A DNA stretch of 64,000 nucleotides from Actinomadura opuntiae (GTDB lineage Bacteria; Actinomycetota; Actinomycetes; Streptosporangiales; Streptosporangiaceae): positions 372,001 to 436,000 of the forward strand of contig NZ_JASNWF010000006.1 of NCBI RefSeq assembly GCF_030283205.1. Direction: 5' to 3'. The position numbers were made by a program, and so were the translations under genes. Positions within the stretch are counted from its first letter, which is position 1. Each line of letters opens with the position of its first letter. This document shows, piece after piece, positions 3 to 22,308 of the stretch. Below the pieces are notes generated by a model. It was not told the DNA's origin, did not search any database, and saw only the letters and a program-made list of their open reading frames with translations.

Positions 3-881
3 GCTCCCGCCGCGATGGTCGCCGGCGTCGTGCATCCCGACATCTGGTGGACGGTCGCGTCCGGCGTGGCCGGGTCGCGGCTGTACGCGCTGGACGGCAA
101 GGGCCGCACCCGCGCCGCCTACACGCTGACCGGCGTCCCGGCGGGCCGCTGGGACGCCATCACGGTCGTCAAGAACGGGGCCGGGGAGTCGGGGCTGTTC
201 GTCGGCGACCTGAGCGCGGGCCGGGCGGGGAGCCTGGTGCTGCACCGGGTGGCCGAGCCGAAGACGCTGACCGGCGGGGCGCTGGCGGCCAAGTCGTTCA
301 AGGTGAAGTACCCCGACGGCGGGCACCGGGGCGCCGCGCTGCTGGCCGACCCGGCCGAGACCCGCGTCTACATCATCACCCGGGACGCGACGGCCGCGGG
401 CGTGTTCGCGCTGCCGGGGGTGCTCGGCCCGGCGACGAACGCGCTGACGCGGCTGCGGACGCTGCCGTTCCCGGTGCGCGGCGGCGCCTTCGCCCGGGAC
501 GGCCGGGTGATCCTCAAGACGACCACGGACGTGCGGATCCTCGGCGGTATCCGCGACGACGCCGGGCAGGTCGTCAAGACGTCGGCGTCGCTGGCCGGGC
601 ACGCGTTCGGGGTGTCCTCGGACGGCAGGAAGGTGTACCTGTCGAACGCGAGCAGCAGCAGGCCGGTGTTCCGTTCGCTGGCGCTGCCGGCGGTGAACGC
701 GGCGACGCAGCCGGACGCGTCCGCGTCCCCGGCGGCGAACGACGGATCACCGGTCGCGTACCCGTCCAAGTCGGGGATGCCCGGCGGCCTGATCGGCACC
801 GGCGCGCTCGTCGGCCTGGTGCTGCTAGGGCTCCTGGGGGGCGTGTTCTACGTACGGGGTCGCCGTCACAGTGGTGCCTGA
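3..881 (+). CDS. Membrane-anchored secreted propeller-like protein, 5' partial
   Basis: The reading frame is open to the left edge, and the first in-frame ATG (position 15) has no ribosome binding site, so the true start probably lies upstream. The visible part (about 290 residues) is rich in short beta-strand repeats, such as the SGLFVGDLSAGR and SSDGRKVYLSNAS segments, resembling a beta-propeller or YVTN-like fold. A Pro/Ser/Ala linker follows, then one C-terminal membrane helix (GLIGTGALVGLVLLGLLGG) and a short basic tail, so the propeller should sit outside the cell on a C-terminal anchor. The last 57 bp overlap the end of the convergent polymerase gene. No enzymatic motif is recognised; the function is unknown. 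The adjacent polysaccharide genes suggest a cell-envelope role. Confidence 0.6.
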   Translation, partial: APAAMVAGVVHPDIWWTVASGVAGSRLYALDGKGRTRAAYTLTGVPAGRWDAITVVKNGAGESGLFVGDLSAGRAGSLVLHRVAEPKTLTGGALAAKSFKVKYPDGGHRGAALLADPAETRVYIITRDATAAGVFALPGVLGPATNALTRLRTLPFPVRGGAFARDGRVILKTTTDVRILGGIRDDAGQVVKTSASLAGHAFGVSSDGRKVYLSNASSSRPVFRSLALPAVNAATQPDASASPAANDGSPVAYPSKSGMPGGLIGTGALVGLVLLGLLGGVFYVRGRRHSGA

Positions 882-2180
882 GCGGCCGCCCGGCAGCTCC
901 AGCGCCTCCTCGGGCCGCCGCTGGACGGGCGCGGGGTCGCCGCCCTGCCGGCGCAGCGCCTCCGTCCACGCCACGAGGATGAACAGCCACACCGACGACA
1001 CGTTCGCGGGGGCGGCGAGGCCCTCGGTGGTCATGCTGTCGGTGAGGAAGCAGCCGAAGATCCCCAGCAGCATGCCGGCGTCGGCGCGCAGCGTCCGGTG
1101 CCGGCAGAGCGTCAGCAGCACGAACCCGAGCGTCAGCAGCAGCGCCGCGAACGCGATCGTGCCGACGACGCCGTTGTCGACGAGCGCGTTGATGAACGCG
1201 TTGTGGCCGCCGCCGAGGCCGATGCTGTCCAGGAACAGGCCGCGGGACGCGCCGAGGCCCCGGCCGAAGATCGGCTCCTCCCGGAACGCGTCCATCGCCA
1301 GCGACCACAGCTCGGTGCGGGAGTTCAGGGTGGCGAGCTGCTCGGTGCTCTCGCCGCGCGACACGAACGCGAGGATCTTGTCGGAGAACGCCAGCACCGC
1401 CAGCACGGCCACCGCGGCGCCCATCACGATCACGTCGATCCGGCCCTTGGGGCCGCGCGCGGTGGCCAGCAGGACGAGCAGCCCCGCGGCGCAGCCCAGC
1501 GCCGCGCCGCGCGTCCCGGTGGCGACGAGCGCGCCCGTCAGGACCGCCAGCGCCACCACGTAGACGACCGGGTGCCACAGCCGGTCCTGCGGCCGGTTCC
1601 ACCGGATCAGGTAGCCGACGACCAGCAGGATCGCGACGGCGAGGTACACGCCGGCGATGACGGGGTGGACGTACAGCCAGTTGAACCGCGACTCGGTGTG
1701 CAGCGTGCGGGGGAACGGGTGCGCGGCGCCGATCCCCACCGACACCAGCACGATCCCGATGAAGATGTGCGCGAGCTTGCGCAGGTCGGCGGGGGTGGCG
1801 CGGGTCGCGATGGCGTGCGCCACCAGCATCGTGATCAGCAGCTGGACGCCGCGGACGATGCCGAGCGACTTGAACGGCGACCACAGCGCCGAGAACGCCA
1901 CGTACCCGCAGAAGCACCAGGCCGCCAGCAGCAGCCCGGTGGTGCGGCGCCGCGGCAGGTAGAGCCCGAACCGCCACACCAGGTACAGCGCCGCCGCGCC
2001 GTAGACGGCGATCTCCAGCAGGACGGTCATGTCGGCGCTGCCGCTGACGGCGTTGTCGACGTCCCGGCTGCGCAGCTTGTAGTCGCTGGCGAGCATCAGG
2101 GCCAGCGGCAGCGCGTAGGCCCACCACCCGGCGCTCGGCGCGGGCGGCCGGCGGCGCGGGAAGATGCCTTTGACGGTCAT
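825..2180 (-). CDS. O-antigen ligase / polysaccharide polymerase family membrane protein (Wzy/WaaL-like)
   Basis: Polytopic membrane protein of 451 residues with about ten hydrophobic segments. It carries the hallmarks of the O-antigen ligase/polymerase superfamily: a TGTRGA motif near residue 221, a loop with NSRTELW and IFGRGLG, then GGHNAFINALVDNGVVG near residue 323. Family members join lipid-linked repeat units to a growing chain or an acceptor on the outer face of the membrane. The start at 2180 is preceded by a good GGGAGGG-type ribosome binding site; in-frame codons extending to 2222 are less likely. The gene ends inside the neighbouring convergent gene. The nearby flippase, Wzz-like protein and glycosyltransferases support a Wzx/Wzy-type pathway. 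Polymerase versus ligase cannot be decided from sequence alone. Confidence 0.8.
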   Translation of the reverse strand: MTVKGIFPRRRPPAPSAGWWAYALPLALMLASDYKLRSRDVDNAVSGSADMTVLLEIAVYGAAALYLVWRFGLYLPRRRTTGLLLAAWCFCGYVAFSALWSPFKSLGIVRGVQLLITMLVAHAIATRATPADLRKLAHIFIGIVLVSVGIGAAHPFPRTLHTESRFNWLYVHPVIAGVYLAVAILLVVGYLIRWNRPQDRLWHPVVYVVALAVLTGALVATGTRGAALGCAAGLLVLLATARGPKGRIDVIVMGAAVAVLAVLAFSDKILAFVSRGESTEQLATLNSRTELWSLAMDAFREEPIFGRGLGASRGLFLDSIGLGGGHNAFINALVDNGVVGTIAFAALLLTLGFVLLTLCRHRTLRADAGMLLGIFGCFLTDSMTTEGLAAPANVSSVWLFILVAWTEALRRQGGDPAPVQRRPEEALELPGGRSGTTVTATPYVEHAPQEP

Positions 2181-2278
2181 GAGGCCCTCCCTGGGTGAGT
2201 CCGGCCGCCGCCGTGCCCGCACGGGCTCGTTAAAGACGAGACCAAGGATACGGGTGGCGGACCGGTAGCCTGTCCCCC

Positions 2279-3166
2279 GTGAATCGAGGGACTCTTCCCG
2301 GCCCGGTCGTCGCCGCGGGCCGTAGCGTGATCCGTGGGTACGGGATGAGCACGGCGGCGCTGCGCCCCGGCCCCGACTTCCTGCTGATCGGCGCCAAGCG
2401 CGGCGGCTCCACCTCGCTGTACTACACGCTGCTGGAGCATCCGCAGGTCATGCCGCTGTTCCCGAACGCGCGGCTGCTGCCCAAGGACAACCACACCAAG
2501 GGCGTCCACTACTTCGACACCAACTACGACAAGGGCGGCGCCTGGTACCGGTCGCACTTCCCGGCGTCCGCGCGCCGCGCCGGCAAGGTCGTGGGGGAGG
2601 GCTCGCCGTACTACCTGTTCCACCCGCTGGCGGCGGAGCGGGCCGGGCGGGACGTCCCGGACGCCAAGATCCTGCTGGTGCTGCGGGACCCGATCGAGCG
2701 GGCGTTCTCGCACTACCGGGAGCGGCGGCGGCAGAACGCCGAGGACCTGCCCACGTTCGAGGAGGCCCTGGCCGCCGAGGCGGACCGGCTCGCCGGCGAG
2801 GAGGAGCGGATCGTCGCCGAGCAGCCCGGCTACGCCAGCTACGCGCACGAGCAGCAGTCCTACCGGGCGCAGGGCGAGTACGCCCCGCACCTGCGGCGCT
2901 GGATGGAGCACTTCCCGGCCGAGCGGTTCTGCGTGCTGGCGGCGGAGGAGTTCTACGCCGACCCGCAGGCCGCCTGCGACACCGTGGCGCGCTTCCTCGG
3001 GCTCGACCCCGCGCCGCTGCCCCCGTCGGCGATCAAGGTGTGGAACGCGGCGCCCAGCCAGGACCTCGCCCCCGCCACCCGGCAGGCCCTCGCCGAGCAC
3101 TACGCCCCCTTCAACACCGACCTGGAAGCGCTCCTAGGCCGCACCTTCCCCTGGGCGCGTGCTTGA
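2279..3166 (+). CDS. Sulfotransferase (PAPS-dependent)
   Basis: Cytosolic sulfotransferase-fold protein of up to 295 residues. The 5'-phosphosulfate loop is visible as GAKRGGSTSLYYTL (about residues 38-51). The 3'-phosphate-binding stretch is LRDPIERAFSHYRE (about 135-148), matching the RDP...S pattern of the family. The enzyme should transfer sulfate from PAPS to a hydroxyl or amine, most often on a sugar in bacterial members of this type. Its position beside the polymerase and upstream of glycosyltransferases and a PAPS-forming kinase suggests a glycan acceptor (inference). The start is uncertain: GTG at 2279 has no clear ribosome binding site, and ATG at 2345 would give 273 residues and still keep the PAPS loop. 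The stop codon is the first part of a dispersed repeat. Confidence 0.85.
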   Translation: MNRGTLPGPVVAAGRSVIRGYGMSTAALRPGPDFLLIGAKRGGSTSLYYTLLEHPQVMPLFPNARLLPKDNHTKGVHYFDTNYDKGGAWYRSHFPASARRAGKVVGEGSPYYLFHPLAAERAGRDVPDAKILLVLRDPIERAFSHYRERRRQNAEDLPTFEEALAAEADRLAGEEERIVAEQPGYASYAHEQQSYRAQGEYAPHLRRWMEHFPAERFCVLAAEEFYADPQAACDTVARFLGLDPAPLPPSAIKVWNAAPSQDLAPATRQALAEHYAPFNTDLEALLGRTFPWARA

Positions 3167-3390: not shown

Positions 3391-3425
3391 GGTCGCTGAC
3401 GGCTGAGGAGGGGCAACGATCCCCG

Positions 3426-5246
3426 TCAGGACGTCCACGCTCCGACGTGGCGGGTGCCGGTGGGTTTGTTGAGGAGGGCGGCGATGGGGGCTGGGAGGGG
3501 GAGGGCGGTGCCGGTGTCCGCCTGGGTGGCGAAACTGCGTTCCAGGGCGCCGTCCTGGCCGGCGGCGCCGCCGGTGGTCTTCAGGACGCCGCGCTTCTCC
3601 TGACCGGTCTCTGACCGGAACCGGCCAAGGTCGGTGAAGTCGGAGGTGCCGCCGGAACCGCGCGCCCACCGCACGACGGCGTGCGGGTTCCCGTCCGGGC
3701 GGACGTAGACGTTGCCGTCGACGGTGAGGCCCATCTGGCCGCCGCCGCGCCGGTGCGTGCCGTCCTCGACGCACAGCAGGCACGGGGTGCGCGGGCGGGC
3801 GTCGGCGAGGGTGTTGTTGCTGATCACGACCTTGGACACCTGCCAGGTCATCGCCGGGTCGCCGTTCTTCTGCCGCGGGTCGCGGCCGGCCGCGTGCGGG
3901 TCGGACGGGCTGCGCGGGTCCTGCGCGAGGTGGATGGTGCGGCCGTTGCCCGCCATCGAGTTGTTCCAGATCTGGACGTCGGAGGTGTTGTTGACCTTCA
4001 GCCCGTCCCCGGCGTTGCCGCCGATCACGTTGCCGGCGACGACCGCCTTGGCGCTCAGCTCCAGCGAGACGCCGTGGTCGGCGTTGCGCAGGATCCGGTT
4101 GCCGGTGAGGGTGATGTCGTAGACGGACTCGTCCATCCACACGCCCTTGCCGAGGTTGTCGGCGAACACGCCGCCGGTCACCGCGACCTGCCGCGACCGG
4201 GTCACCTTCACCCCGCCGGAGACCGGCGAGTACTTGAAGTGCTCGGCGTTGTTGCCGGTGCTGCGGACCCCCTCCAGCCGCAGGTCGTCGGCGTAGTTGG
4301 CGTGGACGCCGAGCATCCCGTTGCCGTCGGCGGTGACGTGCCGGACGCGGGCGTGCGCGGCGAGCACGCTGAGGCCGGTGGTGGCCGAGTCGTCCACGGC
4401 GACGTTCTCGACGGTGACGCGCGGCGCGGTGACCTTCACGCTGCCGAGCTGGGGAAGCGAGGTGGCGTAGCGGCGGACGCCGAGGCCTCGCAGCCGGGAG
4501 CCGGCGCCGCCGACGGTGATCGCCTCCGACAGCGTGCTGGCGCGCACGTCGTGCCCGCGCGGGTCGGATCCGAGGTAGAGCCTGCGGGCGCCCTCGTCGA
4601 CGTAGAAGGTGCCGGGCTTGACGTCGGCACGCGCCCCGACCTGCCGCTGCGGGGCGCCGTCGAGCCACACCTGGTCGGGGTGGGCGGCCATCGGGTGGTC
4701 GGGGGAGACGAACTGGAAGTCGCCGTCCCCGCTGGCCTTGGCGCCCGCGGTGTAGGTGGGGCTGGCGTCGAAGCGGGTCGTCCAGCCCTCGCGGACCCAG
4801 GCGTCGTTGCCGGCCCGCCATCCGCCGACCGGCGAGCTGCCGTCCAGCCAGACGGCCTCGCGCGGCGCCGACTGGATGGTCAGCTTCTTGCCGCCGGGCA
4901 CGGTGACCGACTCGTGGTAGACGCCGCCGCGCAGCACGACCGTGCCGCCGGGGTGCGCCTTGGCGACGGCCCTGGCCAGCGTGCGCAGCGGGTGCTTGCG
5001 GGTGCCGTCCGCGCCGTCGTTCCCGGACGGCGACACGAACAGCGCGCCGTCCGGGACCGGGTAGGCCGTGGAGCCCATGGGCGCCGCGCCGGGCGGCCCC
5101 TGGACGGGGGAGGGCAGCTGGGGCGCCGCGTCGTGGCTGCGCGGCAGCTGCCAGCCCAGGAAGCCCACTCCCGCGATGACCGGCAGGGCGAGCACCCTGA
5201 CGATCATCGTCCGGTTCGAGCTGCGAGACCGGTTCGAGCTAGGCAT
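3426..5246 (-). CDS. Secreted right-handed parallel beta-helix repeat protein
   Basis: 606 residues. An N-terminal signal/anchor segment (about residues 14-32, VRVLALPVIAGVGFLGW) follows Ser/Arg-rich residues. After a Pro-rich linker comes the DUF1565/pectate-lyase-like opening FVSPSGNDGADGTRKHPLRT, then many short repeats with N and G at turns (GNGMLGVHANYADDLRLEG, ILRNADHGVSLELSAKAV), typical of a right-handed beta-helix. Such proteins are often polysaccharide lyases, epimerases or glycan-binding proteins. I see no specific catalytic signature, so the activity is left open. It lies between the sulfotransferase and a lipoprotein in a polysaccharide locus, which suggests it acts on or binds an extracellular glycan (inference). 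The lipoprotein gene just upstream on the same strand ends 57 bp away, so the two may be co-transcribed. Confidence 0.75.
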   Translation of the reverse strand: MPSSNRSRSSNRTMIVRVLALPVIAGVGFLGWQLPRSHDAAPQLPSPVQGPPGAAPMGSTAYPVPDGALFVSPSGNDGADGTRKHPLRTLARAVAKAHPGGTVVLRGGVYHESVTVPGGKKLTIQSAPREAVWLDGSSPVGGWRAGNDAWVREGWTTRFDASPTYTAGAKASGDGDFQFVSPDHPMAAHPDQVWLDGAPQRQVGARADVKPGTFYVDEGARRLYLGSDPRGHDVRASTLSEAITVGGAGSRLRGLGVRRYATSLPQLGSVKVTAPRVTVENVAVDDSATTGLSVLAAHARVRHVTADGNGMLGVHANYADDLRLEGVRSTGNNAEHFKYSPVSGGVKVTRSRQVAVTGGVFADNLGKGVWMDESVYDITLTGNRILRNADHGVSLELSAKAVVAGNVIGGNAGDGLKVNNTSDVQIWNNSMAGNGRTIHLAQDPRSPSDPHAAGRDPRQKNGDPAMTWQVSKVVISNNTLADARPRTPCLLCVEDGTHRRGGGQMGLTVDGNVYVRPDGNPHAVVRWARGSGGTSDFTDLGRFRSETGQEKRGVLKTTGGAAGQDGALERSFATQADTGTALPLPAPIAALLNKPTGTRHVGAWTS

Positions 5247-5303: not shown

Positions 5304-5885
5304 TCAGTTGTGCAGGGCCCCCGCGAACAGTGCGGTCTTGTGCTGGGCGTCGAACTTGACACCGACCTTGACGGACTTGTATCCGGACGACGGCAGGTCG
5401 AAGGCGTAGGACGCCGACCTGCGCCCGCCGGGCGGGACGGTGCCGTAGAAGTCGTTCAGGTTGGCGTAGGAGGTGTGCTGCGCGCGCGTCTTCTTCGCCC
5501 CGTAGACGGCGGTGACCTGCACCTTGTTGAGGTCGAGGGGCTTGCTGGAGCCGTTGTCGAACTTCAGCGTGAAGATGGTGAGCACCTTGCCGGTGAGCTC
5601 GCCGGGCCCCTGGTCCTTGTTCTTGACGTAGCGGATGTTGCTGATCGCCACGCTGACCTTGTCGTCGTAGGTGACCGGCTTGCTCAGCCCGCCGGAGGAC
5701 TTCAGCGTGGCCGAGCCGGGCGCGGCGTTGGCCTGCTCGGTCGGCTGCGCGCTCGGCGGCGGGGGCGGGGTCGGGGTCGCCGCCTTCTTCTTCCCCCCGC
5801 CGCATCCGGTCAGCGCCAGCGCGAGGGCGAGCACGGCGCCCGTCGCGGCGAGATGCCTGCGCGGACGCGCTCCCCGATGGGACAT
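5304..5885 (-). CDS. Lipoprotein with DUF4352-like immunoglobulin-type domain
   Basis: 193 residues. An arginine-rich N-terminus and hydrophobic segment end in the lipobox LTGC, followed by GGGKKK and a Pro/Thr linker, so it should be lipid-anchored outside the membrane. The rest has the alternating strand pattern of the DUF4352/telokin-like fold, including ILTFTLKFDN-type wording (VLTIFTLKFDNGS) and a VPPGGRRSASYAFDLP segment. The start at 5885 has an AGGAGAG site a few bases upstream, so the longer form from 5930 is unlikely. It is divergent from the first beta-propeller gene and precedes the beta-helix gene on the same strand. Family members are commonly hypothetical, and no function is assigned. 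Confidence 0.65.
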   Translation of the reverse strand: MSHRGARPRRHLAATGAVLALALALTGCGGGKKKAATPTPPPPPSAQPTEQANAAPGSATLKSSGGLSKPVTYDDKVSVAISNIRYVKNKDQGPGELTGKVLTIFTLKFDNGSSKPLDLNKVQVTAVYGAKKTRAQHTSYANLNDFYGTVPPGGRRSASYAFDLPSSGYKSVKVGVKFDAQHKTALFAGALHN

Positions 5886-6040
5886 CCGGCTCTCTCCTAT
5901 CCAGTGACGGCGAACGTCGTCAAGCGACAACGAACAGAAACTTCCGGAGCAGAACAGTGTAAACAGGGATACCGGATTACCCTGCTTTTACTTCCGTGAC
6001 CGAGGGGGCCACCGGAGACGAGCGGCAGGGGACCGGCCCA

Positions 6041-9000: not shown

Positions 9001-9298
9001 GAGCAACGTCGAGACGGCCGTCGGCGCCGAGCAGACCGTCTCCGGCCTCACCTACCGGGCGGGCGTGCCGCTGCACATGCGCCTCCAGGTGACCGGCGGG
9101 TCGCCGACCGCGCTGAAGGCGAAGGTGTGGGCGGACGGCGCGGCCGAGCCGGACTGGCAGGCCACCGGGACCGACGCGACGGGCGGGCTGCAGGCCGCCG
9201 GCGCGGTCGGGATCCGGGCCTACCTGGCGGGCAACGCCACGAACGCGCCCGCGGTCGTGTCCGTCGACGACCTGCGGGCGGCCCGGGTCACCGGCTGA
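6041..9298 (+). CDS. Large secreted beta-propeller protein with FnIII-, LamG- and PKD-like modules
   Basis: About 1085 residues. A signal peptide ends near VPAAADTDPP. A beta-propeller domain of about 430 residues follows (repeats such as GKRVYVGGDFTTVDG and STVYLGGNFFNVNGAG), then a fibronectin-III-like segment (YEVLRDGG...TYKVRAVD). Next are a concanavalin/LamG domain (AYWRLGEPSG, FSVEAWVRTTSG, KWHHVVGTLDGGAGMKLYVDG), a PKD domain (FDGSASADPDGTV...WDFGDGTTG) and a final beta-rich domain (SDAFGRTVTGGWG). The GTG at 6041 has an AGGGGA site, and its position matches the starts of the two paralogues that follow; 5996 is the longer alternative. PKD and LamG modules usually bind glycans or surfaces. 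First of three tandem paralogues, and the only one with the C-terminal modules. No catalytic motif is seen. Confidence 0.75.
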   Translation: MRSVLSHRRAWRVRKTAIAAFTAFSTALLGAAAVPAAADTDPPSGTPATVSADPLPTAQVNGVVWSMATVGGTVYATGNFTKARPAGVAEGGAGEVARGNILAFDLTTGNLISSFDHSLNGQGLRIVASPDGKRVYVGGDFTTVDGQTRNHVAAFDTATGALVTSFAPSVSAKVRAIAATDSTVYLGGNFFNVNGAGRTRLAAVKAADGSNIDTWRPTADDDEVFALALAPAGDRVIVGGRFQQLNGERHVGIGAVSAANGGTAPWSSTPIPGKLGDSMFSYVTDLYVSGDTVYGAADGEGWHWFDGRFAAKAATGDLVWLDNCYGATYGMFVQAQAVYSVSHAHDCTSLGAWPDTSPQTFQRALAETTAPTGTDHGSPSVGSSYSGQPIPGLLHWFPRLAIGSFTKQYQAAWAVTGNGDYVAMGGEFPNVNGKAQQGLVRFAVKAKAPNKVGPQAADLGTPTATPMADGSVRVGWKTTWDMDNASLKYEVLRDGGSTPIGTVDRTSTFWDEPNAAYFDATAAPGTSHTYKVRAVDAAGNAVTSAASNAATTGNGTPGPYSSQIRADGAQAYWRLGEPSGPAYDYAGSNDLTLGLGVTQGQDGAISGDADKAVGFGGFFGSSAGSGAAAAPGDFSVEAWVRTTSGSGGKIIGYGSSASGNSSSYDRHLYMTNDGRVVFGVYPGSTKTVQSAAGLNDGKWHHVVGTLDGGAGMKLYVDGAQAAADAGVTSAQSYSGYWRIGGDNLGGWPNRPFNDYFNGTIDEAAVYPRALTADQVARHHGLGTGAVKPNQPPTAAFTSACDELACTFDGSASADPDGTVAAYAWDFGDGTTGTGAKPSHTYAAAGNYTVKLTVTDDKDATGEVVHAVGATSSLLASDAFGRTVTGGWGAADTGGAWSKVGSGGVLSAGGTGQIELPAAKNDGGANLNAVSSQDTDLTFTVATDKEGTGNGVYVWAIGRRVAGQGDYRARLRLRPSGVVSLQLSRTDASNVETAVGAEQTVSGLTYRAGVPLHMRLQVTGGSPTALKAKVWADGAAEPDWQATGTDATGGLQAAGAVGIRAYLAGNATNAPAVVSVDDLRAARVTG

Positions 9299-15164: not shown

Positions 15165-15312
15165 CCTGACCCCCAGCCATTACCGTCGCTTTGTGATTGA
15201 TCCGCACAGATTATGCGGAAGGGCTGCTGCGCGTCCCAGCGGTGAACGACAGTTAATCTGAAGGTTGCGGGAGACTGGTATCCAGGGGGCTGGAGCACCA
15301 GAAGGAGGGCAA

Positions 15313-16473
15313 GTGGCCGAACGGGACGCAAGGTCCGCGGTGGTGCTGGCGCACCCGTCGCCCGACCTCTACGGCTCCGACCGGATGCTCGTGGAGTCGG
15401 TGCGCGCACTGGTCCCGGGCCGCCGCGTCATCGTGGCGCTGCCGGCGGACGGGCCGCTCTCGCCGGTGCTGAGGGACGCGGGCGCGGAGGTCGTCGTGCT
15501 GCCCGTCCCGGTGCTGCGCAAGGCGTACATGTCGCCGTTCGGGCTCGTGCGCCTGGCGTTCGCCGCGACCCGGGCGCTGCCCCGGGCCTGGCGGCTGCTG
15601 CGCCGCGAGCGCGCCGCGGCGCTCTACGTCAACACCGTCACGATCCCGCTGTGGCTGGTCGCCGCGCGGCTCGCCCGGGTGCCCGCGCTGTGCCACGTCC
15701 ACGAGGCCGAGGACGACGTGCCCGGCCCGGTGCGCGCCGCGCTGTCGATGCCGCTGCGGCTCGCCCGCTCCGTCGTCGTCAACAGCCGCGCCAGCGCCGC
15801 CGCGCTCGGCTCCGCCGGGCGGAACGCGCAGATCATCTACAACGGCGTCGAGGAGCCCCCCGGGCCGGTCGAGCCGCCGCGCGCCGAGCTGACCGGGCCC
15901 GCGCGGATCGTGCTGGTCGGCCGGCTGTCGCCGCGCAAGGGCTCCGACGTCGCGGTCCGCGCCGTCCGAGCACTGCGTGATCGCGGCTACGATGCGAACC
16001 TGACCCTGGTCGGCAGCGTCTTCCCTGGATATGAATGGTTCGAGGAGGAGCTGCGGGCCCTGGCCGGCGACGACGGCGCGGTGGCGTTCGCTGGTTTCCG
16101 CCCGTCGGTGTGGAATTCGTTCGCCGAGGCGGACATCGCGATCGTCCCCTCGCGCGTCGAACCCTTCGGTAACGTCGCCGTCGAGGCCATGCTCGCCGGC
16201 CGGCCGGTCGTCGCCAGCGCCACCCAGGGGCTGGTGGAGATCGTCACCGACGGGGAGAACGGGGTCCTGGTCGCTCCGGACGACCCGGACGCCCTGGCGG
16301 CCGGGATCGCCCGGCTGCTGGACGACTGGAACGGCGCGCTGGCGATGGCCAAGCGGGCCGGCGCCGACGCCGCCCGGCGGTTCGGCAAGGACCGCTACCA
16401 CCGCGAGCTGCGGGACACCGTCCGCGGACTCGCCGGACCCGAAGCCGCCCCCCACCCGCCCACGGCCTCCTGA
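15313..16473 (+). CDS. Glycosyltransferase family 4
   Basis: 386 residues. GT-B fold with an N-terminal acceptor part (VVLAHPSPDLYGSDRMLVES) and a C-terminal nucleotide-sugar part with ARIVLVGRLSPRKGSDVAV and VEPFGNVAVEAMLAGRPVV, which includes the E-x7-E pair of GT4 enzymes. GTG at 15313 is chosen because AAGGAGGG lies five bases upstream; the frame is open back to 15265 but only with a TTG. It leads a tight co-directional group with the Wzz-like gene (18-bp gap) and the flippase (overlapping stop/start), consistent with one operon for assembly and export of a polysaccharide. Confidence 0.85.
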   Translation: MAERDARSAVVLAHPSPDLYGSDRMLVESVRALVPGRRVIVALPADGPLSPVLRDAGAEVVVLPVPVLRKAYMSPFGLVRLAFAATRALPRAWRLLRRERAAALYVNTVTIPLWLVAARLARVPALCHVHEAEDDVPGPVRAALSMPLRLARSVVVNSRASAAALGSAGRNAQIIYNGVEEPPGPVEPPRAELTGPARIVLVGRLSPRKGSDVAVRAVRALRDRGYDANLTLVGSVFPGYEWFEEELRALAGDDGAVAFAGFRPSVWNSFAEADIAIVPSRVEPFGNVAVEAMLAGRPVVASATQGLVEIVTDGENGVLVAPDDPDALAAGIARLLDDWNGALAMAKRAGADAARRFGKDRYHRELRDTVRGLAGPEAAPHPPTAS

Positions 16474-16491
16474 GGACTCCAAGAGCATCCG

Positions 16492-18126
16492 ATGACAGCA
16501 CAGACCCCCGTTACACCGGAGATCAGCCTCGTCGAGGCGGTCTGGCGCTACCGGCTGATGTCGCTCATCATCGTGCTGGCCAGCGTCCTCGCCTCGGTCG
16601 CGGCCACCCAGATCCTGTTCGGCGGCGCGACCGCCACCGCCAGGTTCGCGGTCACCGACCCCACCAACAACAACAACGCGCTGCGCATGGGCGTGGTCTC
16701 CGGGCAGGGCTACGCCGCCTACACCGCGCAGCGCGCGGCGTTCGCCGGCTCCACCCCGGTGATGGCCCGCGCCGCCGAGATCGTCAAGAGCAAGCACGGC
16801 CCGAGCCTCACCGGCGAGCAGCTGCGCGGCCGGGTCAAGACCTCCAGCAAGCCGGACGGCGGCGTCGTCGTCGTCACCGCCAACGGCTCGAACATGCCCG
16901 AGGCCGCCGTCATCGCCAACGCGGTGCTGCAGGCCTACCAGGACGTCACCGTCTCCACGAACAACAGCAACCTCGACGAGCAGATCAAGGGGCTGAAGGA
17001 GCAGGAGACGAAGATCACCGAGCAGATGCAGTCGACGCAGGCGGGCACGCACGGCTACAAGGTGCTGGCGAGCCAGCTGGCGAAGATCCAGTCGGACGAG
17101 AGCGGCCTGCTGTCGGCCCGGTCGAAGAACAACGACGGCGTCCAGTTCACCGACACCGCCGACCCGACCGCGCCGACCCCCAGCAAGCTGCCGCAGAACG
17201 GCGCGATCGGCTTCGCGGTCGGCGCGATCCTGGCGTGCATCGTGTCGTTCCTGCGCGCCTCGTCCCGGCCCCGCGCCCAGGTGCTCGGCGGGCCGTCCGC
17301 CGCGATGGGCGGGGCCCCGGGCGGCACGCCCGGCGGGGCGCTCGGCGGCCCGGGCACGCCGATGCCCGAGCTTCCGGCGGGCCGGTCCTACCAGGGCCGC
17401 CGGTCCCTCGGCGACGGGCGCCCGCCCGCGCCGGCGGACGACGGCTACCGCGCCGACTACCGGTCCGACGCCTACGGCGGCTACGCCGACGAGCAGCAGC
17501 CGCCCGAGCGGGGCCGCGGCCGCCGCGCGCGCCGGTCCGCGCCGCCCGCCGACCCCACCGCCGGAGGGGCCTGGGGCCCCGAGGAGGGGCGCGGCGGCCA
17601 GGTCGCGCCGCCCGCGTCGGCCACCCAGGCGATCCCCGCCGCCCCGCCGCCCCTCCCGCCGGAGCGCGGCCGGTCGTCGCGGGCGAACGGGGCCGGGACG
17701 TCCGGGTCGTCGTCGCGCTCGTCGTCCGGCCCGCGCGGCACGCGGGTGGCCGGCAACGGGGCCTCCACCGGGAACGGGGCGTCCGGCGCGCCCAAGACGC
17801 CGCCGGCCAAGCCGCCGTCCGGCAAGGCGCCGCGCAAGGCCGCGCCCAAGGGCCGCGGCGACGCGCCCGCCGAGGCCGACAAGCGGCCCGCCTCCGACAT
17901 CGCCGCCGAGCTGTGGCCCGACGGCGGCGACCCGACCCGCACCGCCGAGGACCCGCTGTACCTGCTCGGCGGCAAGGCGCCCGGCGCGGACAAGCCGTCC
18001 GCCGACAAGCCGGTGTCCGACAAGCCCGCGCCCGACAAGGGCAGGGGCGGCAAGCCCGAGCCGGGCAGCGGGTCCGGCAAGGGAAAAGGCGACACGTCCC
18101 TGATGCACTACGACCTGGACAGGTGA
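16492..18126 (+). CDS. Wzz-like chain-length determinant membrane protein with long disordered tail
   Basis: 544 residues. The N-terminal part is a Wzz/YveK-type co-polymerase: first membrane helix about residues 22-44, an extracytoplasmic region with a helical coiled segment (about 159-200, LDEQIKGLKEQETKITEQMQ), then a second helix (about 237-255) preceded by the Pro-rich TPSKLPQNG typical of the family. The remaining 290 residues form a low-complexity cytoplasmic tail rich in Gly, Pro, Arg, Ala and Lys (repeated DKPSADKPVSDKPAPDK near the end). No tyrosine-kinase domain is fused, and no separate BY-kinase is seen in the window. It probably tunes chain length for the Wzy-like polymerase. 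The stop overlaps the flippase start (GTGA). Confidence 0.75.
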   Translation: MTAQTPVTPEISLVEAVWRYRLMSLIIVLASVLASVAATQILFGGATATARFAVTDPTNNNNALRMGVVSGQGYAAYTAQRAAFAGSTPVMARAAEIVKSKHGPSLTGEQLRGRVKTSSKPDGGVVVVTANGSNMPEAAVIANAVLQAYQDVTVSTNNSNLDEQIKGLKEQETKITEQMQSTQAGTHGYKVLASQLAKIQSDESGLLSARSKNNDGVQFTDTADPTAPTPSKLPQNGAIGFAVGAILACIVSFLRASSRPRAQVLGGPSAAMGGAPGGTPGGALGGPGTPMPELPAGRSYQGRRSLGDGRPPAPADDGYRADYRSDAYGGYADEQQPPERGRGRRARRSAPPADPTAGGAWGPEEGRGGQVAPPASATQAIPAAPPPLPPERGRSSRANGAGTSGSSSRSSSGPRGTRVAGNGASTGNGASGAPKTPPAKPPSGKAPRKAAPKGRGDAPAEADKRPASDIAAELWPDGGDPTRTAEDPLYLLGGKAPGADKPSADKPVSDKPAPDKGRGGKPEPGSGSGKGKGDTSLMHYDLDR

Positions 18127-19610
18127 CGCAGGGGGCTTCGGGACGGAGCTTGAGCACCCCTGAGAGCTCGGTCGAGACGGCCGTCGACATGCCCGCCCTT
18201 CCGGACGGCGTGCTCCCCGCCGCCGGGGGCCCCGGTGGCGCGGCCCCCGGCGGCGGGGCCGGGGGCGCGGCCGTGGCGGGCGCAGGCCGCGGCGGGCGGG
18301 TCGCGGGGAAGGCCGGGCGGCTGCTGGCGTCCGCGGGCGGCGCGGTCGCCGTGCAGTTCGTCACCGCGGGCGGCAGCCTGGTGGTGCAGTCGCTGGCCGC
18401 CCGCACGCTCGGCGCGTCCGGCTACGGCGCGTACGCGCTGCTCTTCTCCATCATCGTCATGATCACCTCGGTGCAGACCAGCTGGGTCGGCGACACCCTC
18501 ACGGTGTTCGACCGGTTCGAGCCGCGGGTGCGCGGCGCGCTGCTGCTGTCGGTCGGCGGCACCGTGGTCGCCGGCGCGGCCGTGGGCGCGGCCGTCGCGG
18601 CCGTCATGCGCCTCGCCGGGCCGCTCGGCATCGCGCTGTTCGCGCTCTCGGTGGCCCTGTGGCTGCTGGAGGAGACCGGGCGGCGGATCTTCACCGCCCG
18701 GATGGAGTTCTGGCGGCTGACCGTCAACGACGGCTGCTACCTGCTGACGACGCTCGCGGTGCTCGGCGCCTCGCTCGGCGCCGGCGCGGACGCCTCGGTG
18801 GAGCTGCTGCTCGCCTCCATGTGCGCGGGGTCGCTGGCCTCGATCCTGCTGGCCCGGGTGCGGCTGCCGCGCGAGGAGTACGCGCTCGCCCCGCTGCGCG
18901 GCACCGCGTTCCGGGAGATCCTCGCGTTCTCGTGGTGGCGGTCGGTGCAGGCCGGCATCCGGCCGACCGCGCTGCTGCTGGCCCGGGTGATGATCGCCGG
19001 GTTCGCGTCCACGGCCGCGCTGGCCGGGGTGGAGGCGGCGCGGCTGCTGCTGTCGCCCGCGCTGACGTTCGTCAACGGGGCCGGCTGGTTCCTGCTCGGC
19101 GACTTCGCCAAGGCGGAGAAGGCCGGCCGGCCGATGCGGGCCCGGCAGGCGGTGCGGGCGTGCGGGCTGATGTCGGGGATCGCGCTGGTGATGAGCCTCG
19201 GCGGGATCGCGCTGGTGGGCTGGCTCGGCCCGGTGGTGACCGGCGGGTCGTTCGACGTGGACCGGACGGCGCTCGGCGGCTGGGCGCTCTACTCGGTGTG
19301 CTTCTCCTGCACGTTGCCGCTGGCCAGCCTCGCGACGGCCCGCAAGCAGTCCCGGTCGGTGTTCGTGATCCGCGGCGTGGAGAGCCTCACCGGCCTCGCG
19401 GTGCTGCTCGGCCTGCTGGCCGCCGACCCGGGGCACGCCGCGATCGCCCCCTACTGCCTGGGCGCCGGCGGCGTCATCTCCGCCGTGATGCTGTGGCGGA
19501 TGCTGCGCAGGGGCGACCCGCCGCGCGGGGGCGTCCCGGCGGCCGCCACGGAGCCGGAAGAGCCGCTGGCGGCCTCCCGGCCGTCCGGGGCCCCCGCCGG
19601 CAACGCCTGA
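18123..19610 (+). CDS. Polysaccharide flippase (Wzx/MATE-like)
   Basis: About 495 residues. After a Gly/Ala/Pro-rich N-terminus there are 10-12 hydrophobic helices. The early motif LAARTLGASGYGAYALLFSI is typical of the polysaccharide-biosynthesis flippase family, which moves lipid-linked oligosaccharides across the membrane. GTG at 18123 overlaps the preceding TGA and implies translational coupling; TTG at 18150 with GGACGGAG, or ATG at 18189, are alternatives that only trim the disordered N-terminus. The last base abuts the end of the convergent permease gene (stop codons at 19608-19610 and 19611-19613), leaving no room for a terminator between them. Confidence 0.8.
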   Translation: MTQGASGRSLSTPESSVETAVDMPALPDGVLPAAGGPGGAAPGGGAGGAAVAGAGRGGRVAGKAGRLLASAGGAVAVQFVTAGGSLVVQSLAARTLGASGYGAYALLFSIIVMITSVQTSWVGDTLTVFDRFEPRVRGALLLSVGGTVVAGAAVGAAVAAVMRLAGPLGIALFALSVALWLLEETGRRIFTARMEFWRLTVNDGCYLLTTLAVLGASLGAGADASVELLLASMCAGSLASILLARVRLPREEYALAPLRGTAFREILAFSWWRSVQAGIRPTALLLARVMIAGFASTAALAGVEAARLLLSPALTFVNGAGWFLLGDFAKAEKAGRPMRARQAVRACGLMSGIALVMSLGGIALVGWLGPVVTGGSFDVDRTALGGWALYSVCFSCTLPLASLATARKQSRSVFVIRGVESLTGLAVLLGLLAADPGHAAIAPYCLGAGGVISAVMLWRMLRRGDPPRGGVPAAATEPEEPLAASRPSGAPAGNA

Positions 19611-20579
19611 TCAGGCGGCGTACTCGTCGGCCGACGCGGCGGCTGGCGTGCGGGCGGACGGAGCGCCGTCCGCGGCCTCGTCGCCGGCGGGGACGGCCGC
19701 CGTTCGGTTCGCGCGCCGCCGTCCGGCCAGCCAGAAGGCGACGGTGCCGGCGGCCAGCACGGTCAGCGTCCACGCGATCGGGACGGCGCCGACGCCGAAC
19801 ATCTTCAGCGCGGACGCGACCAGCACCAGCGCCAGCACGCGGCGGATGAGTCCGCCGGGGGCGCGCGAGGAGATCTTCGAGCCGAGGTAGACGCCGGGGA
19901 TCGAGCCCACCAGCAGCGCGGCGGTGACCTGCATCTGGAAGTCGCCGAACAGCAGGTGGCCGATCGCGGCGGCGAACACCAGCGGCACCGCCTGCAGCAG
20001 GTCGGTGCCGACCAGCTGGTTGGCCTTGAGCGCCGGGTACAGCGCGAGCAGCGCGACGATGATCAGCGAGCCGGAGCCGACCGAGGTGATCCCGACGACC
20101 AGGCCGCCGACGAGCCCGATCAGCACGGTCGGCAGCGGCCGGACCCGGATCTCGGGCGCCTCGCCGTCCGCGGCGCCGGGCCGGTCGCGGTCGCGTCGGG
20201 ACAGCAGCCCGCGGACGACCAGGCCGCCGGCGGCGATCAGCAGCGCGACGCCCATCGCCTTGCTGATGAGGTCCTCGACGCCGCTGCCGTGGCCGAGGGC
20301 GCGGGCCAGCAGGACGCCGGAGAAGGCCGCGGGCACCGAGCCGGCGCAGAGCCAGCCGACGAGCCGCATGTTGATCGTGCCCTGCCGGTAGTGCACCGCG
20401 CTGCCGACGGGCTTCATCACCGCGGCCGCGACGAGGTCGCTGGAGACCGCCGCGAGCGGGCTGACCCCGAAGAACGTGACGAGCATCGGGGTCATCAGGG
20501 CGCCGCCGCCCATCCCCGTCAGGCCGACGACGATCGCGACCAGGAACGAGCCGAGGGCCATGGTCCAGTCGAAGTCCAC
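19611..20579 (-). CDS. TauE/SafE family anion permease
   Basis: 322 residues with eight or so hydrophobic helices in two repeats. The family signatures GLTGMGGGALMTPML (repeat 1) and GITSVGSGSLIIVALL (repeat 2) are clear. Members export or import sulfite, sulfonates or other anions. The GTG start at 20579 has a GAAGG upstream. The APS-kinase gene lies upstream in the same direction with a 154-bp gap, so a role in sulfur-oxyanion movement is reasonable here (inference). The C-terminus is a short Ala/Asp-rich tail. Confidence 0.85.
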   Translation of the reverse strand: MDFDWTMALGSFLVAIVVGLTGMGGGALMTPMLVTFFGVSPLAAVSSDLVAAAVMKPVGSAVHYRQGTINMRLVGWLCAGSVPAAFSGVLLARALGHGSGVEDLISKAMGVALLIAAGGLVVRGLLSRRDRDRPGAADGEAPEIRVRPLPTVLIGLVGGLVVGITSVGSGSLIIVALLALYPALKANQLVGTDLLQAVPLVFAAAIGHLLFGDFQMQVTAALLVGSIPGVYLGSKISSRAPGGLIRRVLALVLVASALKMFGVGAVPIAWTLTVLAAGTVAFWLAGRRRANRTAAVPAGDEAADGAPSARTPAAASADEYAA

Positions 20580-20656
20580 GACGCCTTCACCCCCCTACGG
20601 CGGCATGACCTACCAGCTATATAGGAAAACTCGCCTAACACAGTACGGGACCGCAC

Positions 20657-20674
20657 CCGGGTCTGTTAACCCGG
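20657..20674 (-). terminator. Weak hairpin between APS kinase and permease genes
   Basis: CCGGGT (20657-20662) pairs with ACCCGG (20669-20674) around a six-base loop. There is no clear T-run. It could attenuate read-through from the kinase gene into the permease gene. Confidence 0.3.
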
Positions 20675-20733
20675 CTGCACCGCAACAAACCCGTCGAAAT
20701 TGGCGATCTACCCTCTGACGTGGGGAAACGGGA

Positions 20734-22308
20734 CTACTCAGGGCGGACCCAGCCGCCCGCGACCAGCAGGTCGAGCACCCGGTCGACCGCCTCGTCCGGC
20801 GCCATCGCCGAGGTGTCCAGCGTGAGGTCGGCGTCGTCCGGCACCTCGTAGGGGTCGGAGATGCCGGTGAACTCCGGGATCAGCCCCGCCCGCGCCTTGG
20901 CGTACAGGCCCTTGCGGTCGCGGCGCTCGCACTCCTCCAGCGGCGTCGAGACGTGCACCAGGATGAAGTCGCCCGCCGCCGACACCATCCGCCGCACCTC
21001 GGCGCGGGTCGCCGCGTACGGGGCGATCGGCGCGCAGATCGCCACGCCGCCGTGCCGGGTGATCTCCGCCGCGACGAACCCGATCCGCCGGATGTTCAGG
21101 TCGCGGTCGGCCTTGGAGAACGTCAGGCCCGCCGACAGCATCCGCCGCACGACGTCCCCGTCCAGCAGCGTGACCGTCCGGCCGCCGCGCTCGACCAGGG
21201 CGTCCGCCAGCCCGCGCGCCACCGTGGACTTGCCCGACCCCGACAGGCCGGTGAAGAACACCGTGATGCCGCGCGAGTGCTTGGGCGGGCGCGCCCGCGC
21301 CAGCTCCGCGGCGACGGCCGGCGGGGTGAACCAGTCGGGGACGGGCTCGCCGGCGTCCAGCAGCTCGCCGAGCCGCTCGGGCGTCAGCTCCGCCTGCACG
21401 TGGTCGGGCTCGATCCGCGCGACCGGGCGCCAGATCTCCACGTCCGCGTCGTAGGCCCACGGCTCGGGCACCACGACCGGGACCGCGGTGCCCTCCGCCT
21501 CCTGCTCGGCGAGCAGGTGCGTGGCGCCGTACGCGGCGGCGACGTGCGCGCGCAGCAGCAGGTCGCGCTCGTGGTCGCCGCGCCAGGGCAGCGGCACGGG
21601 GACGATCCGCGTCCCGTCCGGCAGCTCCTTGCGGACGCCCAGCAGCGCCCGGACGAGCGACTCGTCGTGCTCGCCGCTCAGCAGCGGCAGCACCAGGACC
21701 TGCGCGCCGAGCCGCTCGGCGACCTGGCGGATCTGGCCGAGCTGCTTGCGGTGCAGGGGTTCGCGGGTGGCGACACAAAGGCGGTTGCCGGGGGGTGTGG
21801 GGGGTCGCCCCCCCTCGGAAGGCAGGCGGTTGCCGGGGGGTGTGGGGGGTCGCCCCCCCTCGGAAGGCAGGCGGTCGCCGGTCGCTGCCGGGGCGTCCGC
21901 CGGGTCTAGCTCGTCGGGGCGGCGGCGCAGGGAGTGGAACGGTCCGTGGGCGGGGGAGCGGAGCGCCTCGAGCGGCCCCGCCAGGCGCCATCCCTGGGTC
22001 GTCGGGTCCTGCCACGCCTCGGTGACCTTCAGCACCGCCAGCGGCACGCCCTCCGGGTCCTGCAGCACGATCCGCTCGTGCGCGGTCAGCTCCTTGGGCA
22101 CCGACAGGGTGACCGGCACCGGCCAGGGCGTCCCGTCGGCGAGCCGCCCCCCGGCGATCACCATCGCGGCGTCGAACGAGCCGAGGAAGCCGGTCAGCGG
22201 CCGGTACACCCCCGCCAGCAGCAGCTCCAGGTCGGCGAGCTCCACCGCGTCCGGGGCCCACCCGGGCAGGTCGCGCAGCGTGTCGGGAAGGCCGGCTTCG
22301 GCGGTCAC
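20734..22308 (-). CDS. cysC: Adenylylsulfate (APS) kinase fused to a degenerate ATP-sulfurylase-like domain
   Basis: 524 residues. The C-terminal domain (about 345-524) is a complete APS kinase: P-loop FFTGLSGSGKST (about 351-362), LLDGDVVRR (about 381), LNIRRIGFVA, and the lid/substrate region KGLYAKARAGLIPEFTGISD. It should make PAPS from APS and ATP. The N-terminal domain resembles ATP sulfurylase (VYRPLTGFLGS near residue 34), but the catalytic loop, normally R-N-P-x-H-x-x-H, reads TREPLHRKQ (about 181-189), lacking the second histidine, and the GRDHAG loop is not found. A 45-bp unit duplicated in frame inserts about 30 Pro/Gly-rich residues (146-175) just before that loop. APS kinase activity is likely; sulfurylase activity is doubtful, and no CysD/CysN-type sulfurylase gene is present in this window. 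Confidence 0.85.
   Translation of the reverse strand: MTAEAGLPDTLRDLPGWAPDAVELADLELLLAGVYRPLTGFLGSFDAAMVIAGGRLADGTPWPVPVTLSVPKELTAHERIVLQDPEGVPLAVLKVTEAWQDPTTQGWRLAGPLEALRSPAHGPFHSLRRRPDELDPADAPAATGDRLPSEGGRPPTPPGNRLPSEGGRPPTPPGNRLCVATREPLHRKQLGQIRQVAERLGAQVLVLPLLSGEHDESLVRALLGVRKELPDGTRIVPVPLPWRGDHERDLLLRAHVAAAYGATHLLAEQEAEGTAVPVVVPEPWAYDADVEIWRPVARIEPDHVQAELTPERLGELLDAGEPVPDWFTPPAVAAELARARPPKHSRGITVFFTGLSGSGKSTVARGLADALVERGGRTVTLLDGDVVRRMLSAGLTFSKADRDLNIRRIGFVAAEITRHGGVAICAPIAPYAATRAEVRRMVSAAGDFILVHVSTPLEECERRDRKGLYAKARAGLIPEFTGISDPYEVPDDADLTLDTSAMAPDEAVDRVLDLLVAGGWVRPE
21781..21870 (-). repeat. Two exact 45-bp tandem repeats inside a coding region
   Basis: Units 21781-21825 and 21826-21870 are identical, with a partial third start at 21871. 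Each is 15 codons and encodes RLPSEGGRPPTPPGN on the minus strand. The core GGGGGGTCGCCCCCCC is a palindrome also found in related form near 33205 and 53611. Confidence 0.95.

What the first reader, a model, noticed from the sequence alone, without database searches (positions are those of the whole stretch)
825..22308. Candidate locus for a sulfated cell-surface polysaccharide
Within about 21 kb there are a Wzy/WaaL-type protein, PAPS-type sulfotransferase, secreted beta-helix protein, three secreted propeller paralogues, two GT4 enzymes, Wzz-like and Wzx-like proteins, a TauE/SafE anion permease and an APS kinase. The sulfotransferase uses PAPS and the kinase makes it, so donor and user are in one block. 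Sulfated glycans are uncommon in actinomycetes outside sulfolipids. No initiating phosphoglycosyltransferase is seen, so the locus may extend left of the window.
Basis: partly seen in the sequence, partly recalled or inferred. Interest (0 to 1): 0.75.

Follow-up and report, generated by a model that had tools for sequence, protein, structure and literature searches.

The report
Hub for making sulfated surface sugars
This stretch of an Actinomadura chromosome holds most of a gene set for building a surface sugar chain, making the activated sulfate to decorate it and clearing the by-product; related sets, built around the same sulfate-adding enzyme and a partner kinase, lie in many other actinomycetes, although no sulfate has yet been measured on the product.

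Summary
Just outside the window lie the initiating phosphoglycosyltransferase, a CysQ-like phosphatase, CysD, CysN and RmlABDC. The ~31-kb block sits between pth and mfd. Its "APS kinase" (satK) has a degenerate ATP-sulfurylase part and is the genome's only APS kinase. CysH carries APS-reductase cysteines, so PAPS is probably made for sulfation. In 23 of 23 complete genus loci PGT-cysQ-cysD-cysN and satK are constant while the glycan cassette varies.

Of 249 genomes of the order, 210 have both, 23 neither, 13 only the kinase, 3 only the sulfotransferase. Eight type-A loci lack both, at two separate places.

Actinoplanes missouriensis wps-1 matches by gene order and domains; its sulfotransferase, kinase and APS-kinase mutants deform sporangia (PMC13390465).

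Best reading: a rhamnose-type variant cassette in a PAPS-supplied Wzx/Wzy-type sulfoglycan hub. Sulfate on the glycan, kinase substrate and Wzx are unproven.

The parts
15..881 (+). protein with one C-terminal hydrophobic segment (surfMP), in many type-A loci; function unknown
   Evidence: no Pfam family; segment at 259-277; found in many but not all type-A loci
825..2222 (-). Wzy/WaaL-type polymerase or ligase
   Evidence: Wzy_C 61.1 bits vs cut-off 31.7; aligns with the Wzy-like group of sister loci, hhalign probability 95.3
2279..3166 (+). PAPS-type carbohydrate sulfotransferase (ST), WpsH-like
   Evidence: Pfam; its family matches 3rnl sulfotransferase at E=1.1e-39 and heparan sulfate 3-O-sulfotransferase 3A1 at E=2.9e-33
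3426..5246 (-). beta-helix protein with an N-terminal hydrophobic segment
   Evidence: Beta_helix 61.5 bits; family weakly like 3vst xylosidase and 2pyg mannuronan epimerase; kept in type-A loci without ST
5304..5930 (-). lipoprotein-like, DUF4352-like
   Evidence: 21.5 bits, under the cut-off 25.9; conserved in type-A loci
5996..9298 (+). propeller protein 1 with LamG and PKD domains
   Evidence: one N-terminal hydrophobic segment
9363..11117 (+). propeller protein 2
   Evidence: weak Rax2/DUF5122 matches; no hydrophobic segment in the crude scan
11365..13023 (+). propeller protein 3
   Evidence: weak Rax2/DUF5122 matches; one N-terminal hydrophobic segment
13100..14017 (-). APH/protein-kinase-like small-molecule or glycan kinase (WpsI-like), partner of the ST
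   Evidence: PF01636 35.8 bits vs cut-off 23.2; HGD, N, DWE and a lysine invariant; hhalign 97.6% to the long kinase family of sister loci; Foldseek best to a lanthipeptide-synthetase kinase domain and APH(3'), low TM scores
14022..15164 (-). GT4 glycosyltransferase, possibly rhamnosyltransferase
   Evidence: GT4 Pfam models; best NCBIfam match is rhamnosyltransferase Cps2T, 199 bits, under its cut-off 500
15265..16473 (+). GT4 glycosyltransferase
16492..18126 (+). Wzz-like chain-length protein (probable)
   Evidence: 24.2 bits to TIGR01006, under cut-off; hhalign 97.6% to the Wzz group of sister loci
18150..19610 (+). Wzx-like multi-span membrane protein (putative)
   Evidence: no family match; 8 hydrophobic segments in a crude scan; position next to wzz; single-sequence model unusable
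19611..20579 (-). TauE/SafE anion permease
   Evidence: PF01925 144.7 bits; in 22 of 23 complete genus loci
20734..22308 (-). two-domain APS kinase with degenerate ATP-sulfurylase-like N-terminal part (satK)
   Evidence: APS_kinase 193.9 bits; best solved relative 3cr8; sulfurylase motifs lost; the only APS_kinase and the only ATP-sulfurylase Pfam hit of the genome
22414..23361 (-). SAM methyltransferase between satK and mfd; role unknown
   Evidence: in 23 of 23 complete genus loci

Best explanation
The block makes a sulfated, probably rhamnose-containing cell-surface or extracellular polysaccharide by a Wzx/Wzy-type route and carries its own sulfate economy. TauE may move the anion. CysDN (left of the window) makes APS. 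The two-domain APS kinase makes PAPS. The sulfotransferase moves the sulfate to the glycan unit in the cytoplasm. The CysQ-like phosphatase clears PAP. The PGT starts the unit, GT4 enzymes extend it with dTDP-rhamnose, and the Wzx-, Wzy- and Wzz-like proteins export and polymerise it. The APH/WpsI-like kinase acts with the sulfotransferase, most likely by phosphorylating the same unit or its carrier. Shown here: gene content, conserved frame, near-constant sulfotransferase-kinase pairing, loss of sulfurylase motifs, APS-reductase type CysH. Inferred: all enzyme activities, the sugar, the order of steps and the sulfate itself.
For: Part list incl. PGT (429 bits vs cut-off 295.6), CysD, CysN, Rml. 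Frame constant in 23 of 23 complete genus loci around exchangeable cassettes. Kinase loci with ST 79 of 80; ST loci with kinase 40 of 40; over 249 genomes of the order 210 have both and 23 neither. Eight type-A loci lack both, with short gaps at both sites. Six other sulfotransferase loci of this genome show no kinase of this family, Wzx, Wzy or satK. CysH has CC, CxxC and ECGIH. In A. missouriensis single deletions of ST wpsH, kinase wpsI, the predicted wzx, wzy and wzz, and the satK homologue all spoil sporangia (PMC13390465, sections 6, 16 and part 1 of section 17 read). Cobetia marina, with a proven Rha2S polymer, has cysN/C, cysD, cysQ, a permease and ST in its capsule cluster (PMC11766843, passages).
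Against: I saw no report of sulfate measured on a product of this locus type. 10 of 65 genus genomes lack this ST, and the 8 whose locus was read keep satK, cysDN and cysQ, so these genes have other uses. In the order 13 of 249 genomes show the kinase without the ST and 3 the ST without the kinase. CysDN is the only ATP sulfurylase found and must also feed cysteine synthesis. The CysQ-like match is 73 bits against a cut-off of 229. The glutamate that serves as base in heparan 3-O-sulfotransferases (role recalled) is a glycine here. Wzx is unproven. In A. missouriensis one of two sulfotransferase mutants (wpsB) had normal-looking sporangia, though with tenfold fewer spores released, and the authors note that blocked lipid-linked intermediates may account for defects.
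Confidence: 0.74

Rival explanations
1. The cys genes are simply the assimilation operon that happens to lie at the pth-mfd site, and the glycan is sulfated only by chance or not at all; the sulfotransferase modifies a small molecule or lipid.
For: CysDN is the only ATP sulfurylase found in the genome; satK, cysDN and cysQ stay in the 8 read loci without the ST.
Against: CysH and sulfite reductase lie on another contig; CysH is of APS-reductase type, so assimilation needs no APS kinase. In 80 named kinase loci, of 25 named genera, the ST is present in 79, a Wzy-like gene in 80 and a Wzx in 74. Type-A copies occur in stretches without cys genes (L167, L174, L178).
Confidence: 0.13
2. The product is a glycan whose main anionic group is phosphate or phosphodiester; the kinase is the key enzyme and sulfate is minor or optional.
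For: The kinase is as constant as the ST, and 13 genomes of the order show the kinase without the ST; ST-less genus genomes all carry a CDP-alcohol transferase relative instead.
Against: In the genus the kinase is lost with the ST, not kept without it; four ST+ genomes carry the CDP-alcohol transferase as well.
Confidence: 0.08
3. Capsule-type locus whose propeller and beta-helix proteins are the main product (adhesins or matrix proteins) and the glycan only their anchor.
For: Three large propeller proteins and a beta-helix in the block.
Against: They vary or are missing in sister loci (propeller in 43 of 80 and 6 of 40, beta-helix in 0 of 80 and 3 of 40) while the ST-kinase pair stays.
Confidence: 0.05

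Closest known systems
wps-1 cluster of Actinoplanes missouriensis (Tezuka and Ohnishi 2026, PMC13390465)
   Same: Predicted Wzx, Wzy, Wzz, heparan-sulfate-type sulfotransferase, kinase WpsI and an adjacent Sat/APS-kinase gene. In our set 32 of 34 Micromonosporaceae loci show the order Wzz, Wzy, kinase, ST, Wzx, the other two being cut by a contig end.
   Different: The window's cassette has other Wzx, GT and Wzz genes, no GH26, no GT26, no second sulfotransferase, and adds rhamnose genes, beta-helix and propellers, with CysQ-like, CysD, CysN and PGT on its left. The paper reads AMIS_7390 as a Sat/APS-kinase family member that forms APS; the motifs in our homologues point to APS kinase only. 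The A. missouriensis sequence itself was not examined here.
Sulfated capsule cluster of Cobetia marina KMM 1449 (PMC11766843, passages)
   Same: dTDP-rhamnose genes, cysN/C, cysD, cysQ, sulfate permease and sulfotransferase in one cluster; polymer with rhamnose 2-sulfate.
   Different: ABC-transporter capsule with Kdo carrier; APS kinase fused to CysN; product also bears phosphoglycerol.
Synechan xss cluster of Synechocystis (PMC8205485, passages)
   Same: Wzx/Wzy-type locus with sulfotransferase genes.
   Different: Cyanobacterial; two sulfotransferases; the term PAPS does not occur in its text.
Two-domain APS kinase of Thiobacillus denitrificans (3cr8)
   Same: Sulfurylase-like plus APS kinase domains; the sulfurylase part is reported to lack activity (title cited in PMC13213808).
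   Different: Here it sits in a glycan locus beside CysDN; oligomeric state and activity unknown.

Membership tests
Wzx/Wzy-dependent polysaccharide locus | initiating polyprenyl phosphoglycosyltransferase | tested here: met
   TIGR03025 429 bits vs cut-off 295.6, 7.3 kb left of the window
Wzx/Wzy-dependent polysaccharide locus | Wzy polymerase | tested here: met
   Wzy_C over cut-off; ligase and polymerase cannot be told apart
Wzx/Wzy-dependent polysaccharide locus | Wzx flippase | tested here: inconclusive
   no family match, no profile match to the Wzx of sister loci, model unusable
Wzx/Wzy-dependent polysaccharide locus | Wzz chain-length protein | tested here: inconclusive
   under cut-off; profile match to sister Wzz group
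wps-1 type sulfoglycan locus | heparan-sulfate-type sulfotransferase | tested here: met
wps-1 type sulfoglycan locus | WpsI-like kinase | tested here: met
   hhalign 97.6% to the long kinase family; the window's form is short, about 290-305 aa; WpsI itself was not compared
wps-1 type sulfoglycan locus | Sat/APS-kinase gene in the locus | tested here: met
wps-1 type sulfoglycan locus | second sulfotransferase, GH26 and WecG-type transferase | tested here: not met
   not found in the window's cassette; second ST in 39 of 80, GH26-like in 55, WecG in 54 of the named loci. So it is filed as a variant, not as wps-1 proper
wps-1 type sulfoglycan locus | sulfate on the polymer | not testable with these tools
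   not shown in A. missouriensis either
APS kinase with inactive sulfurylase domain (T. denitrificans type) | loss of sulfurylase catalytic motifs with intact kinase P-loop | tested here: met
   aligned satK of 31 loci, one too short to read: the Asn of the RNP motif is Glu or Asp in 27 of 27 readable genus rows and absent in the 3 others; GRDHAG absent in 30 of 30; P-loop GLSxxGKST in 30 of 30. Catalytic meaning of the motifs is recalled
APS kinase with inactive sulfurylase domain (T. denitrificans type) | no ATP-sulfurylase activity, hexamer | not testable with these tools
   needs enzyme assay and sizing
Assimilatory APS reductase (CysH) | CC and CxxC cluster cysteines | tested here: met
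   DLCCHLRK, GCEPCT, ECGIHL read in P0002; meaning of the motif is recalled
APH-fold kinase | ATP lysine, HGDxxxxN loop, metal-binding D | tested here: met
   K, HGD, N and D invariant in 22 aligned rows and 37 rows

The most novel reading that the evidence does not exclude
The sulfotransferase and the APH/WpsI-like kinase are one functional unit: the kinase phosphorylates a sugar of the lipid-linked repeat (or caps it), and this is what the sulfotransferase recognises, a bacterial phospho-then-sulfo code. The pair is a removable anionic module on an otherwise unchanged glycan, and in the lineages that drop it the negative charge is supplied by a CDP-alcohol phosphodiester module (cytidylyltransferase and CDP-alcohol transferase), so that one genus exchanges sulfate for phosphodiester.
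Probability: 0.25. Interest if true: 0.82.

Novelty: new variant of a known kind. Interest (0 to 1): 0.6.

Why it matters
Two papers of which I saw passages say that bacterial sulfated polysaccharides are known only, or scarcely outside, cyanobacteria (PMC13390465, PMC8205485); the marine Vibrio and Cobetia capsules already contradict this. If the reading is right, a sulfoglycan locus, often with built-in sulfate activation, lies in at least six named orders of actinomycetes. It would also offer a reason for the unexpected defect of the A. missouriensis APS-kinase mutant: loss of PAPS for the glycan rather than of cysteine. The near-constant sulfotransferase-kinase pair is a testable enzyme partnership, and heparan-sulfate-type sulfotransferases from soil bacteria are of practical interest.

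Tried and rejected
Rejected: (1) a chance neighbourhood: six other sulfotransferase loci of the same genome (L007, L193-L197) have no kinase of this family, Wzx, Wzy or satK; only three weak other-family matches of 27-33 bits. (2) satK as a working bifunctional PAPS synthase: motifs lost. (3) Strict exclusion of sulfotransferase and CDP-alcohol transferase: 4 of 55 ST+ genomes have both. (4) A single loss explaining all ST-less type-A loci: 4 changes on the cassette tree (3 forced by well-supported branches) and 4 on the frame tree. But only 3 independent pairs exist, all going the same way for the kinase; the sign test cannot reach significance (p 0.25); for the CDP-alcohol transferase 2 of 3 pairs go the opposite way to ST and 1 does not differ. 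The Fisher values (1.6e-9 for ST and kinase in 39 genomes, 5.6e-9 for ST and CDP-alcohol transferase in 65) ignore kinship.

Results against the pairing: of 249 genomes of the order, 13 show the kinase (E<=1e-10) without the ST (E<=1e-30): G073, G085, G091, G101, G106, G120, G129, G157, G164, G190, G206, G244, G271. Three show the ST without the kinase: G262 (E 1.8e-101, 970 contigs) and G003 and G272 (only E 7.5e-31 and 3.5e-34, perhaps paralogues). None of the 16 was followed up.

Led nowhere: Wzx by family, profile, solved structure and single-sequence model (mean pLDDT 46.2). The kinase model (mean pLDDT 70.4) gave low TM scores (0.28 and 0.35 for the first and third hit) and no substrate. 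Paper searches gave nothing on the point.

Rows dropped: from the named scan the tool kept the best 80 of 307 confirmed kinase loci. The 40 ST loci were picked by me, mostly one or two per genus, from the rows printed; for some I had already seen a kinase hit nearby. Split-contig genomes G001, G009, G015, G016 and other partial loci (G004, G010, G018, G026, G031) were left out of the 23. Genes were called by a simple script of mine, not by a standard gene caller.
Full report
Check of the observation. The window is contig 6, 372001-436000, of a 10.5-Mb genome. G+C content is 0.70-0.76 throughout. Reading on to the left gives glmU, prs, rplY, pth (named from their sequence starts and position, not by a family search); then a polyprenyl phosphoglycosyltransferase (TIGR03025, 429 bits, over cut-off), a CysQ-like phosphatase (73 bits, under the CysQ cut-off of 229), CysD, CysN, RmlA, RmlB, RmlD and RmlC; then the window genes as far as mfd. 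The block therefore runs from about contig position 363262 to 394308, roughly 31 kb, of which the window holds the last 22 kb.

Host. The genus is Actinomadura by name: the 728154-base contig of genome G032, a member of the same genus group, has the length of NZ_FOVH01000003.1 of Actinomadura madurae DSM 43067. The species of the window is not known to me.

Sulfate activation. The only APS kinase found in the genome is window 20734-22308. It has a PUA and ATP-sulfurylase-like N-terminal part. The best solved relative is 3cr8; a paper title cited in PMC13213808 (passages seen) calls the T. denitrificans enzyme a two-domain hexameric APS kinase without ATP-sulfurylase activity. In an alignment of 31 satK rows (one too short to read) the asparagine of the first sulfurylase motif is glutamate or aspartate in 27 of 27 genus rows, the arginine before it is glycine in four of them, and the GRDHAG motif is gone in 30 of 30, while the kinase P-loop is kept in 30 of 30. 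The other sulfate-activating gene found is CysD of the block: PF01507 has two matches in the genome, CysD and a CysH on contig 30, and the sulfurylase model has one, in satK. CysH carries CC, CxxC and ECGIH and lies beside a sulfite reductase. By established knowledge (recalled) this is the APS-reductase type, which needs no PAPS. PAPS would then serve sulfotransferases; phosphopantetheinyl transferases also release PAP (recalled), so CysQ may have other work.

Conserved frame, exchangeable middle. Forty-kilobase loci of genus members were fetched, genes called with a codon-position script and compared by BLAST. All 23 complete loci, the window's included, have PGT, cysQ, cysD and cysN on the left and satK and the methyltransferase on the right; tauE is in 22 of 23. 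The middle comes in kinds. Type A (the window's): rhamnose genes, wzy, ST, beta-helix, lipoprotein, propellers, kinase, two GT4, wzz and wzx; 7 of 23. Type A without ST and kinase: 8 of 23. Other cassettes with a 33-46% identical ST, other Wzx, Wzy-like and Wzz genes, and GT2, WecG, GH26-like or further sulfotransferase genes in various mixes: 8 of 23. In other genera of the order the frame recurs: 22 of 40 fetched ST loci contain cysN, 28 satK and 25 mfd within at most 20 kb; these are lower bounds because the stretches are short. Type-A cassettes also occur in other genera in stretches that show no mfd or cys genes (L167, L174, L178). Genome G198 has an ordinary ST locus with the frame as well (L177), and G228 has a second ST with a kinase beside it (not read). 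So the window looks like a type-A cassette placed in the sulfation hub.

A kinase tied to the sulfotransferase. The gene at 13100-14017 has the catalytic motifs of the APH fold. Sister loci have a longer protein that Pfam does not recognise (still none at E<=5 for one member), which profile comparison joins to it (probability 97.6, E 3.5e-12). Starting from the kinase, 79 of the best 80 named loci hold the ST; the exception, L112, ends with its contig 47 bases after the kinase. The 80 carry 25 genus names (3 have none) in six named orders, mostly Actinomadura and Actinoplanes relatives. Starting from the ST, 40 of 40 loci of other genera hold the kinase. Over 249 genomes of the order, 210 have both, 23 neither, 13 the kinase only and 3 the ST only, at the thresholds given. 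In the genus, 29 of 39 genomes have both; 10 lack the kinase, and of these G003 shows only a weak ST match and the other 9 none. In the eight ST-less loci read, six-frame searches at E<=10 find neither gene, and the two sites measure 0.04-0.23 kb where seven ST+ loci have 0.98-1.27 kb. The two genes lie about 10 kb apart in the window, so one deletion would not remove both and leave the genes between. In a class-wide sample 28 of 158 genomes have the kinase at E<=1e-25, so the module is widespread but patchy.

What replaces it. All 10 ST-less genomes of 65 have a CDP-alcohol transferase relative of at least 390 bits, against 4 of 55 ST+ genomes. In the nine loci read that have it, it lies within or beside the block, next to one or two relatives of a cytidylyltransferase (Pfam names from one locus, L033). 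Kinship is not corrected for. This is the basis of the novel case.

How it most likely works. See Best explanation. Sulfation before export is inferred from the absence of hydrophobic segments in ST and kinase and from the need for cytoplasmic PAPS. The rhamnose assignment rests on RmlABCD and on a GT4 closest to Cps2T (under cut-off). The sulfotransferase family resembles heparan sulfate 3-O-sulfotransferase at both nucleotide-binding stretches (naming of the stretches recalled), but the glutamate of its HFF motif region is a glycine here.

Comparison with the known. Paper PMC13390465 (abstract, sections 6 and 16, part 1 of section 17 and passages seen) describes wps-1 of Actinoplanes missouriensis. 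Genes A-K except wpsD were needed for normal sporangium formation; wpsA, C, G, H (ST), I (kinase), J and K mutants formed squashed sporangia; the AMIS_7390 mutant (Sat/APS kinase family) had an unexpected severe defect. Its authors propose a sulfated polysaccharide and say it awaits verification. The word Actinomadura does not occur in it. In our set 32 of 34 Micromonosporaceae loci show Wzz, Wzy, kinase, ST, Wzx in that order, and 33 of 34 have satK. Sulfated bacterial capsules with clustered sulfate-activation genes are described in Cobetia (passages) and Vibrio (passages). Sulfate content has been reported for a Streptomyces exopolysaccharide (abstract start only, PMC9911575). Searches of the held library showed me no description of the hub, its cassettes or the ST-kinase pairing across genomes; most subscription papers are not held.

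Verdict. New here, as far as those searches go, are the sulfate economy gathered at one chromosomal site, the exchange of cassettes, the kinase partner across genomes and the likely role of the two-domain APS kinase.

Noticed in passing
L033:13140-14832 and relatives in 14 of 65 genus genomes: Cytidylyltransferase / CDP-alcohol transferase / cytidylyltransferase trio in the hub of L033; the CDP-alcohol transferase occurs in all 10 genomes that lack the sulfotransferase and in 4 that have it.
   Followed up: partly
L190 (G279:C118) and G279:C136: One genome with seven sulfotransferase matches at E<=1e-30; L190 holds one kinase followed by three sulfotransferases.
   Followed up: no
window 3426-5246: The beta-helix family is weakly like a xylosidase and a mannuronan C5 epimerase and is kept in type-A loci without sulfotransferase; it may trim or remodel the polymer.
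   Followed up: partly
window 22414-23361: A methyltransferase beside satK is present in 23 of 23 complete genus loci; role unknown.
   Followed up: no
L066-L067 (G037, another family of the order): Sulfotransferase, kinase, tauE and satK with two PGT-like genes but no glmU or pth in the 40 kb read, so the cassette is not bound to the pth-mfd site.
   Followed up: no
window 23403-52306: Genes to the right look ordinary: mfd, penicillin-binding protein, enolase, thiolase, cystathionine beta-synthase-like protein, MMPL protein; the ORFs tried at 27268-27969 and 28019-28855 match no Pfam family.
   Followed up: no
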